Shown in pieces: positions 7,647-64,000 of a stretch of 64,000 nucleotides of DNA. The notes below the pieces were generated by a model, which saw only the letters and a list, made by a program, of their open reading frames with translations, was not told where the DNA came from and did not search any database. The position numbers and the translations under genes were made by a program. Position 1 is the first letter of the stretch, and every line of letters starts with the position of its first letter. Source of the DNA: Baekduia soli (GTDB lineage: Bacteria > Actinomycetota > Thermoleophilia > Solirubrobacterales > Solirubrobacteraceae); contig NZ_CP042430.1 of the NCBI RefSeq assembly GCF_007970665.1, forward strand, positions 2,790,001 through 2,854,000, read 5' to 3'.

Positions 7647-9529
7647 GCGCCACGCAGAGCACGTTGCCCGACTTCGTGCGCGAGCACGACATCGACCAGG
7701 TCACGCTCGACATCATCGAGAACACGCTGTCCAACGCGCGCTACGAGATGGACCGCGTGTTGGAGACGACGGCGGTCAGCCCGGTCATCCGCGAGCAGTC
7801 CGACCAGTTCCCGCTCATCGCCGACCGCCATGCGCGCATGGTCATCGGCCAGTTCGGCAGTGCGATCCCGACGATCATCGAGCACTCGCCGTACGAGGTC
7901 TCCGACCTGCGCGACGGCGACGTCATCGCGCTCAACGACCCCTACATGTGCGAGGGGTCGGTCTCCCATACGCCGGACATGCTGCTGCTGCGGCCGATCT
8001 TCTTCGAGGACGACCTCGTCGGCTACGCGTCGCAGTGGGGCAACCTCATCGACGTCGGCGGCACGGCCGCCGGCTCCATGCCGATCAGCGCGCGCAGCAT
8101 CTACCACGAGGGCGTGCGCATGCCCCCGATCAAGCTCTACGACCAGGGCAAGCTCAACGAGGAGGCGCTGCGGCTGTTCTGCCACAACACGCGCGCCCCC
8201 AAGGAGGTCGAGGCCGACATCAAGGCCATCGCCGCCGGCACCGCGGCGGGTGCGGCGCGCGTCATCGAGCTGTGCGAGCGCTACGGCAAGGAGACCTACC
8301 TCGAGGCCTGCGACGCGATCCTGGACCGCACGCGCTCGGCCGTCATCGAGCTCATCCGGACCTACCTGCCCGACGAGAAGCGCCTCAGCTTCGAGGACTT
8401 CGCCGACGACGACGGGCTCGGCACCGGCCCGATCAAGCTCAAGATGACGATGTGGCGCTCCGGCGACACGATCAACGTCGACTGGGAGGGGACCGACGGG
8501 CAGGTGCCCGGGTCGGTCAACTTCTACCTCAACCCCGAGATGTTCAAGATGTTCGTCGGGGTGTTCCTCATCATGGCGTTCGCGCCCGACGTCGTCTTCA
8601 ACGACGGCTACTCGGACATCATCAACGTCAACATTCCCGAAGGCTCGGTCCTCAAGCCCGAGTTCCCGGCCCCGCTGGGCAACCGGCTGACGCTGATGGC
8701 CCGCCACTTCGACGTCTTCGGGGCCGTGTTCTCCAAGATGCTCGGTCTCCAGTTCGCGGTGTCGGGCAGCTACGGCACCAGCCCGAACTTCGTGTACTCG
8801 GGCACCGACTCCAAGGGCGAGAACTACCAGATCCTCGAGATCCTCTACGGCGGCATCCCCGCCCGCCCGGCCGGTGACGGCCTCGACGGCCATTCCTGGT
8901 GGCCGCTGTTCAAGGCGGTCCCGACCGAGTATCTGGAGAAGTACTACCCGCTGCGCGTCGAGAGCTACTCCGTGCGCACGGACTCCGGCGGCGCGGGCTA
9001 CCACCGCGGTGGCCACGGGGTGGCCAAGGTGTACACCTTCCTCGAGGACGGCCTGATCACCTTCCAGGACGACCGCGCCCGCACGCATCCGTGGGGCGTC
9101 AACGGCGGCATGTACGGCGAGAGCTCGGAGAAGACGCTCATCCGCGCCGACGGCCGCGAGTGGAGCCTGCCGTCCAAGGTCGAGAACGTGCCGGTCCACA
9201 AGGGCGACCGCCTCGTGTTCTCCACGGCGGGCGCCGGCGGCCTGGGCGATCCCCTGGACCGCGAGCCCGAGCGCGTGGCCAAGGACGTGCGCGCCGGCCT
9301 GGTGACCGTCGAGGCCGCGCGGGAGGACTACGCGGTCGAGCTCGGCCCCGACGGCGAGGCCGACGCCGAGAAGACGGCCGCCGCCCGCGAGGCCAAGCGC
9401 GCCTCGCGCGAGCCGCGGCCGGACTTCGACTTCGGCCCGCTGCCCGAGATCGGCGAGCTGCGCAAGGAGATCGCGGCCGAGCGGCGCGAGTTCGAGGCGG
9501 CGCTGGCCAACGAGTCCGACTCGGGGTGA
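7643..9529 (+). CDS. hyuB: Hydantoinase/oxoprolinase family subunit B (HyuB)
   Basis: 628 residues. The start ATGA overlaps the hyuA stop, so translation is probably coupled. Typical HyuB features: an early FVREHDIDQVTLDIIENTLS, the segment REQSDQFPLIADRHARMV, IALNDPYMCEGSVSHTPDM, and GGAGYHRGGHGVAKVYTF near residue 450. Partner of HyuA in an ATP-dependent amidohydrolase or carboxylase; the specific substrate is not known. Co-occurrence with a dedicated ABC importer suggests uptake followed by breakdown. The stop codon falls inside the first copy of the 91-bp repeat, so the last three codons (Asp-Ser-Gly) partly derive from repeat sequence. Confidence 0.92.
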   Translation: MSATQSTLPDFVREHDIDQVTLDIIENTLSNARYEMDRVLETTAVSPVIREQSDQFPLIADRHARMVIGQFGSAIPTIIEHSPYEVSDLRDGDVIALNDPYMCEGSVSHTPDMLLLRPIFFEDDLVGYASQWGNLIDVGGTAAGSMPISARSIYHEGVRMPPIKLYDQGKLNEEALRLFCHNTRAPKEVEADIKAIAAGTAAGAARVIELCERYGKETYLEACDAILDRTRSAVIELIRTYLPDEKRLSFEDFADDDGLGTGPIKLKMTMWRSGDTINVDWEGTDGQVPGSVNFYLNPEMFKMFVGVFLIMAFAPDVVFNDGYSDIINVNIPEGSVLKPEFPAPLGNRLTLMARHFDVFGAVFSKMLGLQFAVSGSYGTSPNFVYSGTDSKGENYQILEILYGGIPARPAGDGLDGHSWWPLFKAVPTEYLEKYYPLRVESYSVRTDSGGAGYHRGGHGVAKVYTFLEDGLITFQDDRARTHPWGVNGGMYGESSEKTLIRADGREWSLPSKVENVPVHKGDRLVFSTAGAGGLGDPLDREPERVAKDVRAGLVTVEAAREDYAVELGPDGEADAEKTAAAREAKRASREPRPDFDFGPLPEIGELRKEIAAERREFEAALANESDSG

Positions 9530-9882
9530 CGCTCGCCCAGGGGGCGAGGTCACCTTGCGGGTGTCGGCCCTGGGGGGCCGAACCCGCGGCTCGGGGCGGC
9601 GATCAGCGCACTCGGGGTGACGCTCGCCCAGGGGGCGAGGTCACCTTGCGGGTGTCGGCCCTGGGGGGCCGAACCCGCGGCTCGGGGCGGCGATCAGCGC
9701 ACTCGGGGTGACGCTCGCCCAGGGGGCGAGGTCACCTTGCGGGTGTCGGCCCTGGGGGGCCGAACCCGCGGCTCGGGGCGGCGATCAGCGCACTCGGGGT
9801 GACGCTCGCCCAGGGGGCGAGGTCACCTTGCGGGTGTCGGCCCTGGGGGGCCGAACCCGCGGCTCGGGGCGGCGATCAGCGC
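9521..9882. repeat. Four tandem 91-bp repeats, each with two bulged hairpins
   Basis: Copies start at 9521, 9612, 9703 and 9794 and look identical; the last ends around 9882. Each unit holds hairpin A (GTGAC, bulged G, CTCGCCC, loop AGG, GGGCGAG, GTCAC), CTT, then hairpin B (GCGGGT, bulged G, TCGGCCC, loop TGGG, GGGCCGA, ACCCGC). The array fills the gap between two convergent genes and supplies the stop codons of both. A single relative with the same architecture lies at 63264-63325, also between convergent genes. Candidate bidirectional terminator or REP-like element; there is no U-tract. Confidence 0.9.
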
Positions 9883-18316: not shown

Positions 18317-18784
18317 GTGTTCGTCCTGCTCCGCCACCTTCAGCAGCTGCGCCGCTCGGCGGCCCTGCCGCGCACGGCGACGCGCGGCTCGCTCGCCCTG
18401 CGCCACGTCGACGCCGGCTCGTGCAACGGCTGCGAGCACGAGCTCGGCGCCGTCACCGGCGTCTACTACGACCTCCAGCAGTACGGGCTCGACGTCGTCG
18501 CGTCCCCGCGCCACGCCGACGTGCTCCTGGTCACCGGCGCCGTGACGACGCGGATGGCCGGGCCGCTGCAGGCGGCGTACGCGGCGATGCCCGAGCCGCG
18601 GCTGGTCGCCGCGCTCGGCGACTGCGCGCTGGGCCGCGGCGTCCTGGGCACGGCGTCCGAGCTCGCCGGGCCGCTGGACGGCCTGCTGCCCGTCGACCTG
18701 CGGATCCCGGGCTGCCCGCCGGCGCCGGCCGTGATCGCGGAGCACCTCGTCGCGGCCCTGCGCGACCGCGCGGCCGGCAGCTAA
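18317..18784 (+). CDS. HyfI/NuoB-like iron-sulfur small subunit
   Basis: 155 residues from the GTG immediately after the previous stop. Four cysteines in the proximal [4Fe-4S] pattern are all present: GSCNGCEHE (Cys36 and Cys39), ALGDCALG, and IPGCPPAP. The fold is that of NuoB and the small subunit of group-4 hydrogenases. It would hold the cluster next to the large subunit's catalytic region. No other iron-sulfur subunit and no hyp maturation genes are nearby, so the electron donor to this complex is unclear. The operon ends here; a 32-bp gap with AAAGGACG precedes the next gene. Confidence 0.9.
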   Translation: MFVLLRHLQQLRRSAALPRTATRGSLALRHVDAGSCNGCEHELGAVTGVYYDLQQYGLDVVASPRHADVLLVTGAVTTRMAGPLQAAYAAMPEPRLVAALGDCALGRGVLGTASELAGPLDGLLPVDLRIPGCPPAPAVIAEHLVAALRDRAAGS

Positions 18785-61680: not shown

Positions 61681-61845
61681 ATGCCGGACCTCCTCGACCT
61701 CCCGGGCCCCTCGCGCCGGATCCGCGTGGAGCCGCTGCAGCCGCCTGTGCCCGTGCGCCGCCCCGCCGCGCCGCCCGAGCCGGTCCCCGAGCGCGCGCCG
61801 GCCCCGCCCGAGCGCGAGCGCCGGCCCGAGCCGGCTCCGGCGTGA
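61681..61845 (+). CDS. Small Pro/Arg/Glu-rich protein
   Basis: 54 residues, starting MPDLLDLPGPSRRIRVEPLQ and continuing as low-complexity Pro/Glu/Arg to the end. No domain. It ends with a GTGA overlap into the next gene, so it may mainly serve to couple translation, or may be a short linker peptide. The support is the -10 element and the overlap, so this is tentative. Confidence 0.45.
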   Translation: MPDLLDLPGPSRRIRVEPLQPPVPVRRPAAPPEPVPERAPAPPERERRPEPAPA

Positions 61846-63263
61846 GCCAGGCACCCGACTTCCTGCAGGCCGTCGTCGGCTACCGCGCCTGGCACGTCGG
61901 CGAGGACGGCCTGCTGCGCCCGTGGACGTTCGCGGCGCTGGCCTGGGAGCCGGGCGCCAACACGGCCGTCTGCGCGCGCGACGCCCGCCATCGGCCGCCC
62001 GTCGCCGACTGCATGTGCGGCCTGTACGCGCTGAGCGACCCCGGCGACCGGCGGCTGAACTTCCGCGCCGACCAGGCCGTGGGGGCCGTCGCCGCCTGGG
62101 GCGACCTCGAGGTGCACCGGACCGGCTTCCGCGCCGAGCACGCCTGCGTGCTCGCGCTCGCGCTGCCCACGCGCTGCGAGGTCGGCGCCCGTGACCGGCT
62201 GGTGGCCGCGGCCGCCCGCTACGACGTGCCGCTCGTGCGCGCCGACGGGCTGAGCGCCGAGGCGCTGCGCCACGGCGCGCCGCTGCCCGACGACCTCTGG
62301 GAGCCGTCGTGGCCCGCGCCGCGCCGGGCGCCAGCGCGCCGCGGCGCGGCGCCGGCGGTCGACCCGCACGCCTTCGCGTCGGCCGCGCGGGGCATCGCGC
62401 TGGACTCCCATCTGTGGGTCGAGACGGCGCTGGGTTCGGTCGTCGTCGGCGTCACGAGCGCGCTCGCCCGTGACCTGCCCCGCGACCTGCGGCTGTCGCT
62501 GCCCGACCCCGGCGCCGTGCTCGAGGCCGGCGACCACGCCGCGACGGTCAGCACGGGGGAGGGGGCCTTCGGCGTCTGGGCCCCCGTGGGCGGCTCGGTC
62601 CTGGCCGTCAACCCGCGACTGGCCGCCGACCCCGGGCTGCTGGCGCGGGACCCCGAGGGCGCGGGCTGGCTCCTGCGCCTGGCCCCGCGCGACTGGGAGG
62701 CCGACGCCCGTGCGGTGACGTGGGGCGCGGCCGCGGCGCGCCAGTACGCGGCCTGCGTGGCCCGCGACGCCGCGCGCGGCGATGCCTTCGCCGATGTGCG
62801 CCTGGAGCGCCTGCGCGCGCTGCCGCCCGTGCGCAGCGCCGCCGACGTGCTCGCCGCGCTGCGGGCGCGCCGCGAGGCGCCGCGCTTCGCCGACGCCGGC
62901 GCCCTGCAGCGCGAGCTCGGCGGGCGCCTCGGCGCCGCGCTGGGTGCCGACGCACGGCTGCGGGCGCACCTGGGACGCCTCGGCCACGTCGTGCGCTTCG
63001 TGCTGCACGAGCCCGACGCCGAGCTCGTGCTCGATCTCCGCGACGGCGGCGCGCGCCTGGACGCCGCGGCGCCGGGCGGCCTCGAGCTGCGCTGCGCCGC
63101 CGAGGACGCCTACCGGTGGTTCACCGGGACGCTCGACGCCGCCGGCGCGCTGCGCACGGGCGAGCTGCGGTCCTCGTCGGGCCCCGGTCCGACGCTGCGC
63201 GCGCTGGCCGTGCTCAAGCACCTGCGCGTGGCCGCCTGGGACCACGCGCCGTCCTGGGCCTAG
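61842..63263 (+). CDS. Three-domain protein: cysteine-containing N-terminal domain, GcvH-like domain without the lipoyl lysine, SCP2-like domain
   Basis: 473 residues, GTG start overlapping the previous stop. Residues 1-140: YRAWHVGEDGLLRPWTFAAL, a CARDARHRPPVADCMCGLYA cysteine cluster and GAVAAWGDLEVHRTGFRAEH, a domain known from stand-alone actinobacterial proteins. Residues about 175-310 follow the glycine cleavage H-protein layout (ALDSHLWVETALGSVVVGVT, then VLEAGDHAATVSTGEGAFGV and WAPVGGSVLAVNPRLAADPG), but the ESVKA lysine that carries lipoate is missing (STGEGA). Residues about 370-470 resemble an SCP2 sterol-carrier domain (VVRFVLHEPDAELVLDLRDG). Possibly a lipid-binding protein; function unknown. 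Confidence 0.75.
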   Translation: MSQAPDFLQAVVGYRAWHVGEDGLLRPWTFAALAWEPGANTAVCARDARHRPPVADCMCGLYALSDPGDRRLNFRADQAVGAVAAWGDLEVHRTGFRAEHACVLALALPTRCEVGARDRLVAAAARYDVPLVRADGLSAEALRHGAPLPDDLWEPSWPAPRRAPARRGAAPAVDPHAFASAARGIALDSHLWVETALGSVVVGVTSALARDLPRDLRLSLPDPGAVLEAGDHAATVSTGEGAFGVWAPVGGSVLAVNPRLAADPGLLARDPEGAGWLLRLAPRDWEADARAVTWGAAAARQYAACVARDAARGDAFADVRLERLRALPPVRSAADVLAALRARREAPRFADAGALQRELGGRLGAALGADARLRAHLGRLGHVVRFVLHEPDAELVLDLRDGGARLDAAAPGGLELRCAAEDAYRWFTGTLDAAGALRTGELRSSSGPGPTLRALAVLKHLRVAAWDHAPSWA

Positions 63264-63325
63264 GCGAACGCCGGCCCAGGGGGCCGGGTTCGCTTGCGGG
63301 TGTCGGCCCAGGGGGCCGAACCCGG
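63264..63325. repeat. Single double-hairpin element related to the 9.5-kb repeats
   Basis: Hairpin A': GCGAAC, bulged G, CCGGCCC, loop AGG, GGGCCGG, GTTCGC. Then TT and hairpin B: GCGGGT, bulged G, TCGGCCC, loop AGG, GGGCCGA, ACCCG. Hairpin B is nearly identical to the 9.5-kb copies. Hairpin A' differs on both arms in a compensatory way. It starts directly after the upstream stop and lies between convergent genes. Confidence 0.85.
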
Positions 63326-63343
63326 GCCGGCGCCCGCGCGGCG

Positions 63344-64000
63344 TCAGGCCGCGACGCGCTCGTCGTCCCGCCGAGCGGGCGCGGCGGACCACGCGGGCAG
63401 CGCGGCCTCCAGCGCGGCGAAGACGCCGGCGTCCAGGGCGGTGCCCGCGTCGCGGCGCATGATCGCCAGGACCTCGCCGGGCGCCAGCGGACCGCGGTAG
63501 GGCCGCTCGGCGCTCAGCGCCTCGGCGACGTCGGCGACCGCGAGGACCCGCGACGGGCGGTCGAGCTGGGCGGCGCCCAGGCCGCGGTGGTAGCCCGTGC
63601 CGTCCAGTCGCTCGTGGTGGGCGGCGGCGACCTGGGCCAGGGCGGCGAACGCCGGGATGCGCTGCAGGATCTCCAGCGTCCACTCGGGGTGGCGGCGCAT
63701 CGCCCGCCACTCGGCGGCGTCGAGCCTGCCGGGCTTGTCGAGGATGCGGTTGGAGACGCCGAGCTTGCCGATGTCGTGCAGGAGCGCGGCGCGGCGGATG
63801 GCGCGCTGCCCGACGGCGTCGTCGCCGAGGCGGGCGGCCAGCGCGACGGCGATCTCCGCGACCCCGAGGGAGTGGCGGCCGGTGTAGGGCGACTTGGCGT
63901 CGACGATGGTCGCGAAGGCCTCCGCGATGCGGTCCAGGCGGTCGTCGTCGGCGTACTGCGCGCGGTCGGGCGGCTCCAGCGCGGAGACCAGCGGCGTCTG
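63344..64000 (-). CDS. HD-GYP-type phosphodiesterase domain protein, N-terminus outside the window
   Basis: The last 219 residues are present. HD motif: LLHDIGKLGVSNRILDKPGR; upstream SPYTGRHSLGVAEIAVALAA (first metal His); downstream MRRHPEWTLEILQRIP and AAAHHERLDGTGYHRGL. The GYP proline is histidine (GYH), but the metal-binding HDxGK and HHExxDGxGY residues are kept. The class degrades cyclic di-GMP or is a related metal-dependent phosphohydrolase. Any sensor domain lies beyond the window edge. A double-hairpin element follows its stop. Confidence 0.85.
   Translation of the reverse strand, partial: QTPLVSALEPPDRAQYADDDRLDRIAEAFATIVDAKSPYTGRHSLGVAEIAVALAARLGDDAVGQRAIRRAALLHDIGKLGVSNRILDKPGRLDAAEWRAMRRHPEWTLEILQRIPAFAALAQVAAAHHERLDGTGYHRGLGAAQLDRPSRVLAVADVAEALSAERPYRGPLAPGEVLAIMRRDAGTALDAGVFAALEAALPAWSAAPARRDDERVAA

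What the first reader, a model, noticed from the sequence alone, without database searches (positions are those of the whole stretch)
63264..63325. Second double-hairpin element at another convergent junction
It shares nearly all of hairpin B with the 9.5-kb array but has a different, still fully paired hairpin A. It begins directly after a stop codon and ends 18 bp before the opposite gene's stop. Two of two copies at convergent ends in one window suggests a common genomic feature.
Basis: seen in the sequence. Interest (0 to 1): 0.55.

Follow-up and report, generated by a model that had tools for sequence, protein, structure and literature searches.

The report
Stop-codon-anchored double-hairpin repeats in Conexibacter
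The element is one of at least 45 copies of a short DNA repeat that folds into two hairpins, usually sits right on the stop codon of ordinary genes, and keeps its fold by matched base changes, which points to a job in the messenger RNA at the end of the protein-coding message.

Summary
Window 63264-63325 forms two tandem hairpins (outer stem, bulged purine, 7-bp inner stem, 3-nt loop) directly after a TAG stop, 18 bp before the opposite gene's stop. It belongs to a dispersed family: at least 45 copies in the 5.21-Mb genome, patchy in the family (14 of 146 genomes; Conexibacter/Solirubrobacteraceae).

Convergent junctions are over-represented in this genome (23 of 40 sites; 22 of 207 background junctions), but this is not the general rule: in another genus 15 of 18 sites lie between co-oriented genes. 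What is shared is the stop codon: it ends within 5 nt of the hairpin foot at 34 of 40 sites here and within 7 nt at 16 of 18 there (13 of 26 in a congener). In many copies the stop is part of stem A and the far arm complements it. In two sets of orthologous genes the last sense codon's third base changes together with the 3'-UTR arm.

Near-identical copies at unrelated genes and empty orthologous sites show dispersal; no transposase is linked. Best reading: a REP-like repeat acting as an mRNA hairpin at translation termination. It lacks the GTAG tag and RAYT link of classical REPs. Mechanism is inferred.

The parts
63264..63325 (+). Double-hairpin element (the finding), single copy
   Evidence: model R1 match 83.4 bits
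63264..63293 (+). Hairpin A: 6-bp outer stem, bulged G, 7-bp inner stem, AGG loop
   Evidence: in 24 genome copies 12 of the element's 26 pairs show changes on both sides
63294..63295 (+). TT linker
63296..63325 (+). Hairpin B: bulged G, 7-bp inner stem, AGG loop; outer stem 5 bp in this copy
63261..63263 (+). TAG stop of gene 61842-63263 (GCV_H domain protein), directly at the foot of hairpin A
63344..63346 (-). TGA stop of the convergent gene (HD_5 domain protein, runs past the window; whole gene in L125)
9525..9587 (+). Array copy 1; stop TGA (9527-9529) of the hydantoinase B gene lies inside stem A (GGTGAC/GTCACC)
9616..9678 (+). Array copy 2 (91-bp period)
9707..9769 (+). Array copy 3
9798..9860 (+). 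Array copy 4; the convergent luciferase-like gene ends 15 bp further on

Best explanation
It is a member of a lineage-specific, dispersed, REP-like repeat family. The element is about 62 bp and folds into two tandem bulged hairpins. It spreads by an unknown route and usually comes to rest with the foot of hairpin A on the stop codon of a gene on the same strand. Its likely action is in the mRNA (inferred). Hairpin A closes at, or around, the stop codon once the terminating ribosome has left; the double hairpin then stands at the very end of the message. There it slows the last steps of translation or termination, as E. coli REPs close to a stop codon do, and blocks 3'-to-5' decay or separates neighbouring messages. 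Shown: the family, its placement, orientation, covariation, dispersal and empty sites. Inferred: that the RNA, not the DNA, is the active form, and the effect on translation or decay.
For: Placement: stop end within 5 nt of the foot at 34 of 40 independent sites in the own genome (20 at 0/+1), 13 of 26 in G001, and within 7 nt at 16 of 18 in G163. At the 20 convergent sites that could be used, the foot touches or overlaps the stop in 18, against 3.5 expected for random placement in the gap. Specificity: 1 of 203 other gene ends in the own genome has a bulged hairpin at the stop, as in shuffled sequence (1 of 203); the same strict test finds 16 of 60 ends near elements, which include the facing gene's ends. 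Orientation at co-oriented junctions: 33 sense to 4 antisense in G000, G001 and G163. Structure: changes on both sides in 18 of 26 and 19 of 26 pairs, 0 of 500 shuffles (alignments fitted to the model, so leaning towards it). Stop codon in stem with matching far arm: window 9525, L117, L132, L106, L141, L154 and others. Orthologues: infA CGA-TGA pairs with CAT in G000, CGC-TGA with CAG in G006; the L154/L147 gene has GTGATC/GATCAC in G006 and CTGATC/GATCAG in G001; an acyl-CoA dehydrogenase gene has GGG/CCC, CCG/CGG and TCC/GGA after the same CTAG in different species. Dispersal: near-identical 62-bp copies after GCTAG at L126, L127, L129 (G001) and L164 (G003); 10 G001 sites, 42 orthologous gene ends in congeners, no element found. 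E. coli precedent: passages and one section of PMC12306157.
Against: No expression data. The strand test for RNA is weak: 66 G.T against 45 A.C non-standard pairs, p 0.057. Copies away from a same-strand stop exist: 7 of 26 sites in G001, 2 of 18 in G163, and one orthologous copy in G003 starts 27 nt after the stop (L254). In a few the frame runs through the element (L128, L130, L152, L158). Compensated stems could also be kept by templated (quasipalindrome) mutation rather than by selection. In the commonest TAG class the stop is next to the stem, not in it. Other genomes held would add 9 sense and 2 antisense cases to the orientation count.
Confidence: 0.5

Rival explanations
1. A purely DNA-level selfish repeat: an element moved by a single-strand transposase (HUH/Y1 or other) whose target is CTAG or CTG. 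Because CTAG occurs mostly at stop codons in this genome, insertions land there and the hairpins matter only for transposition.
For: Outside elements the window has 9 CTAG, 6 of them gene stops. Near-identical copies sit directly after GCTAG at four places, and four copies not at a stop follow CTG (L128, L130, L158, L090). Empty orthologous sites. Bulged hairpins and no target duplication seen by eye recall IS200/REP ends (from memory).
Against: No Y1 transposase in the own genome, and in 11 other genomes its presence does not track the elements, though some are incomplete drafts; 10 of the 11 Y1 places found there were looked at and none has an element below E 0.09. Only 16 of 94 copies follow CTAG exactly. 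It does not explain why the far arm follows the wobble base and stop codon of orthologous genes, nor the TGA-centred placement in G163.
Confidence: 0.27
2. An intrinsic, possibly bidirectional, transcription terminator for convergent gene pairs.
For: Very stable GC hairpins on both strands; 23 of 40 sites convergent in the own genome.
Against: No T-run seen by eye after hairpin B in the 94 copies. In G001 the element at a sigma-70 gene sits at the stop, upstream of a hairpin that matches the single terminator-like hairpin after this gene in congeners (read by eye). In G163 15 of 18 sites lie between co-oriented genes.
Confidence: 0.15
3. A DNA site for a nucleoid or topology protein (as REP/BIME sites bind gyrase, recalled), placed where convergent transcription piles up supercoils.
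For: Convergent enrichment and palindromic, tandemly repeated arrays.
Against: Sense orientation and single-nucleotide contact with the stop codon have no role in this model; the co-oriented placement in G163 is against it.
Confidence: 0.08

Closest known systems
REP sequences (GTAG class) and REPINs
   Same: Short imperfect palindromes, dozens of copies, at gene ends, also in arrays; GTAG REP ends often supply the TAG stop to a flanking ORF (PMC3733652, passage); REPs fewer than 16 nt from a stop lower translation (PMC12306157).
   Different: No conserved GTAG tag, no linked RAYT; the unit is two hairpins in direct orientation; stop contact is the rule here (34 of 40). In E. coli the share within 15 nt is 446 of 4,072 by PMC12306157 and 260 of 496 by an earlier study cited there, so the contrast depends on the count. 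A stop codon inside a compensated stem was not seen in the passages read.
MIRU (mycobacterial interspersed repetitive units)
   Same: Short, repetitive, apparently mobile, placed at codon junctions of genes (PMC12548453, one passage); actinobacterial.
   Different: MIRUs are described there as inserting at start codons with an internal ORF coupled to the gene; here a double hairpin is tied to the upstream gene's stop. Sequence homology not tested.
CGTC-tagged REPs
   Same: Palindromic repeats that apparently lack a dedicated transposase (abstract of PMC3733652).
   Different: A conserved CGTC end was not looked for here; no membership claimed.

Membership tests
REP (GTAG class) | Short dispersed imperfect palindrome in many copies at gene ends | tested here: met
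   45 copies at E<=0.01; at 39 of 40 independent sites a same-strand coding frame ends between 60 nt before and 100 nt after the element's start
REP (GTAG class) | Conserved GTAG tetranucleotide at one end | tested here: not met
   4-mers before the foot in 94 copies: CTAG 16, GTAG 3, many others; the other end was not tested in this way
REP (GTAG class) | Associated tyrosine transposase (RAYT, Y1_Tnp) | tested here: not met
   PF01797 absent from the own genome; in 11 other genomes no correlation with element presence; 10 of 11 Y1 places looked at, none with an element below E 0.09
MIRU | Insertion at codon junctions of neighbouring genes | tested here: inconclusive
   Stop-codon contact shown, start-codon contact not shown
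MIRU | Internal ORF coupled to the neighbour | not tested
   Not examined
Intrinsic terminator | GC hairpin followed by a T-run | tested here: not met
   No T-run by eye in the 3' flanks of 94 copies; the hairpin part is met
Known Rfam family | Match to a curated covariance model | tested here: not met
   62800-63800 searched up to E 10: the single match (63164-63198, below its gathering score) is not at the element

The most novel reading that the evidence does not exclude
The repeat is a stop-codon-gated RNA device: hairpin A is built from the last sense codon, the stop codon and a complementary 3'-UTR arm, so its folding reports whether a ribosome is terminating. It uses that to set mRNA decay or re-initiation downstream, and either selection or the insertion process tailors the far arm to each host gene's stop.
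Probability: 0.2. Interest if true: 0.75.

Novelty: new variant of a known kind. Interest (0 to 1): 0.52.

Why it matters
Here a repeat family in an under-studied actinobacterial lineage is tied to the stop codon, often to the single nucleotide, in two genera, and its stem follows the codon sequence of the host gene by matched changes. That gives a natural set of about 100 loci examined here (80, 21), with empty orthologous sites as controls, to ask whether a repeat can act on translation termination, and how such a repeat finds stop codons without a linked RAYT.

Tried and rejected
RAYT/IS200 mobilisation was tested and not supported. A far arm copied from the target as the general rule was rejected: near-identical copies carry their own GGGAAC/GTTCCC to four places, and at the KARI (ilvC) gene L114, L117 (no Pfam family) and the RNB-domain gene L121 the in-stem stop is not at the congeners' stop position. 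It is not excluded for single cases: at L132 the 5' arm GCGTAAGCC is also present in G006 without the element. A CTAG duplication at both ends was considered because CTAG recurs after some copies, often 13-23 nt away; it coincides with TAG stops of convergent genes, and TGA stops occur at the same distance, so it was dropped. Transposase as upstream neighbour: Pfam on 36 of the 40 upstream genes found none; L090, L096 and L099 were left out, L116 has no same-strand gene there (two flanking genes were scanned instead), and L104 and L117 had no family. A strict pattern in genome contigs found nothing; a looser one gave 14 stretches, all in Conexibacter, Solirubrobacteraceae or Solirubrobacterales MAGs. 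Literature: the listings showed no title on these elements; of the papers only passages, and one section of PMC12306157, were seen.

Limits and rows dropped: copy numbers are lower bounds, since one search scored 150 of 12,277 first-look candidates and 36 per genome; one more own-genome copy, at a stop, turned up later (L282, E 6e-4). Of 50 matches, the window duplicate of L125 and one antisense overlap (L086 2505) were left out; of 48, two antisense overlaps in L160; 94 copies remain. Partial BLAST hits without a full R1 match (L123, L124 and others) are not counted as sites. Only part of some genomes' copies was examined in context: G003 1 site, G016 5, G032 1, G163 18 sites from 17 loci, G072 2, G162 1; G001 and G006 all matches. 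Gene calls come from my own script, as no annotation was at hand; the 'co-opposite' labels of L096, L099 and L127 were overruled. In one search, L131 counts as 'none' for a weak coding score although a TAG ends 1 nt before it. The orientation count 33:4 covers G000, G001 and G163 only and was made by hand from the labels. Gene names sigma-70, L15, arginyl-tRNA synthetase and FKBP are from Pfam.

Full report
OBSERVATION. The element at 63264-63325 is real and as described. It consists of two hairpins of the same plan: an outer stem (6 bp in A, 5 bp in this copy's B), one bulged purine on the 5' arm, 7 bp, a 3-nt loop (AGG). As RNA it folds at -48.0 kcal/mol, 0 of 200 shuffles as low. It starts right after TAG (63261-63263) and leaves 18 bp before the opposite stop (63344-63346). 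The array at 9525-9860 has four copies with a 91-bp period, and the stop TGA of the upstream gene is inside stem A of its first copy. A mechanical scan of both strands finds such bulged hairpins only at these two places and once more at 18591.

FAMILY. BLAST with the element gives 36 places in the own genome. A covariance model from 24 of them (R1) gives 45 at E<=0.01, a lower bound because only 150 first-look candidates were scored. Of 61 genomes searched, the own one included, 8 have copies at E<=0.001. With a second model (R2) 14 of 146 genomes of the family match at 1e-4. Presence is patchy: within the own genus G002 (81% complete) and G005 have none. Large relatives without a single match (G005 4.4 Mb, G024 5.5 Mb, G017 7.1 Mb) act as negative controls. 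Names come: contigs of Conexibacter sp. RYN_242 and RYN_258, Solirubrobacteraceae HOG64, and Solirubrobacterales bin_221; G003 and G016 correspond to RYN_258 and HOG64 by equal contig lengths (an inference). Rfam has no match at the element.

STRUCTURE IS KEPT. On the 24-copy alignment 12 of 26 pairs have changes on both sides. On model-fitted alignments the figures are 18 of 26 (46 distinct rows, own genome) and 19 of 26 (46 distinct rows, other genomes), 0 of 500 shuffles reaching them. The outer three pairs of hairpin A vary most and still pair in most copies. Such alignments lean towards the structure, and copies are related, so the shuffle counts are not probabilities.

THE STOP CODON RULE. 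For 40 independent sites in the own genome the end of the same-strand gene's stop lies within -5 to +5 of the element's first base in 34, at 0 or +1 in 20. In the 20 convergent sites that could be used, the foot touches or overlaps the stop in 18 against 3.5 expected by random placement in the free gap, 0 of 20000 simulations. Only 1 of 203 other gene ends has a bulged hairpin there (shuffled: 1 of 203); the same strict test finds 16 of 60 ends near elements. In G001 13 of 26 sites lie within 5 nt; 7 have no same-strand stop by the script, and in 5 of these the opposite gene's stop is 3-32 nt away. In another genus (G163) 16 of 18 sites lie within -3 to +7, and 15 of the 18 are between co-oriented genes (for three of them the downstream coding score is low). 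So the convergent bias (23 of 40 against 22 of 207; p 4e-10) is not shared by G163, the stop-codon rule is. TAG is over-represented at these stops (21 of 39 against 43 of 148; p 0.007). Counter-example: an orthologous copy in G003 starts 27 nt after the stop (L254).

STOP CODON IN THE STEM. In many copies the stop is in the 5' arm and the 3' arm complements it, for example GGTGAC/GTCACC (window 9525), GTGAAC/GTTCAC (L117), GCGTAA/TTACGC (L132), TCGAAT-A(G)/ATTCGA (L141, a ribosomal L15 family gene). Elsewhere it is in the loop (L087) or the 3' arm (L118, L150). Orthologues make the point. infA (IF-1) ends CGA TGA AC in G000 with far arm CAT, and CGC TGA AC in G006 with far arm CAG. A second gene (L147/L154, no Pfam family) ends GCG TGA TC with far arm GATCAC in G006, and GCC TGA TC with far arm GATCAG in G001; G000 has a weak relative there (R2 E 0.09). 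At an acyl-CoA dehydrogenase gene four species carry elements after the same CTAG with outer stems GGG/CCC, CCG/CGG (twice) and TCC/GGA; G002 and G005 have none. Pairing is not perfect everywhere: the G000 infA stem has one mismatch and folds less well (z -1.96, 7 of 200 shuffles as good), and the G001 and G003 dehydrogenase copies have broken inner pairs or lost bases.

DISPERSAL. L126, L127 and L129 (G001) and L164 (G003) carry nearly the same 62 bp directly after GCTAG; their flanks show no similarity to one another in the BLAST comparison. For 10 G001 sites, 42 orthologous gene ends from congeners (73-97% identity) were laid side by side (one, G002 at L132, only matches a contig end); R2 finds no element in any of these 42 loci up to E 1. 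By eye, G000 has a decayed hairpin at the arginyl-tRNA synthetase gene (L197). At one junction G001 and G006 carry elements in opposite orientation. At a sigma-70 gene of G001 the element lies at the stop, upstream of the single hairpin that congeners also have (by eye), so it was added to a terminator-like structure, not in place of it. Upstream genes with a Pfam name are mostly ordinary cellular genes (enolase, HU-like protein, IF-1, KARI, NadA, RNB-domain enzyme), with no transposase among the 36 of 40 tested.

HOW IT WORKS. Sense orientation at co-oriented junctions (33 to 4 in G000, G001 and G163; the other genomes held would add 9 and 2), contact with the stop and covariation of the wobble base with the UTR arm favour an RNA role at translation termination. 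E. coli REPs fewer than 16 nt from a stop codon stall ribosomes and lower translation (PMC12306157: passages and section 8). A terminator role is unlikely (no T-run by eye, intercistronic copies). A DNA-only mobile repeat aimed at CTAG is the strongest rival: CTAG is rare, and 6 of the 9 in the window outside elements are gene stops. The non-standard pair test (66 G.T to 45 A.C, p 0.057) does not settle RNA against DNA.

KNOWN KINDS. It works like a REP and resembles MIRUs in habit, but lacks the GTAG tag and RAYT link, so it is not filed as a GTAG REP. GTAG REPs are reported to supply TAG stops to flanking ORFs (PMC3733652, passage), a close precedent. MIRU: one passage of PMC12548453.

Noticed in passing
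window 1-64000: CTAG is very rare: 9 outside the elements, 6 of them the stop codon of a gene.
   Followed up: yes
L141:2489-2552 (G001, ribosomal L15 family gene): Both hairpins are the same sequence and contain a copy of the gene's own end (TCGAATAG), as if the hairpin with the native gene end had been duplicated.
   Followed up: partly
L116:2371-2614 (G000): Three tandem diverged copies with no same-strand gene ending there, about 1.6 kb from a ClpP gene; the inner stem has a TC/CT internal loop that by eye recurs in other copies.
   Followed up: no
L288, L290, L291, L292 (G163): The sequence after the element repeats a GGCGAGGTGACG-like stretch, which could serve as ribosome-binding site of the next gene.
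   Followed up: no
L133 and L156: The same junction carries the element in opposite orientations in two species (G001, G006).
   Followed up: partly
window 61842-63263: The upstream gene encodes a 473-aa protein with a glycine-cleavage H-like domain at 188-290, an unusual size for that domain (from memory).
   Followed up: no
L106 and L118 (G000): Two ThiS-family genes, alike in sequence, both carry an element, with the stop codon at different places in the hairpin.
   Followed up: no
L086:1444-2470 (G000): The NadA-like gene call stops 125 nt before the element and matches only part of the profile, while another frame runs on to a TGA just before the element; a frameshift is possible.
   Followed up: no
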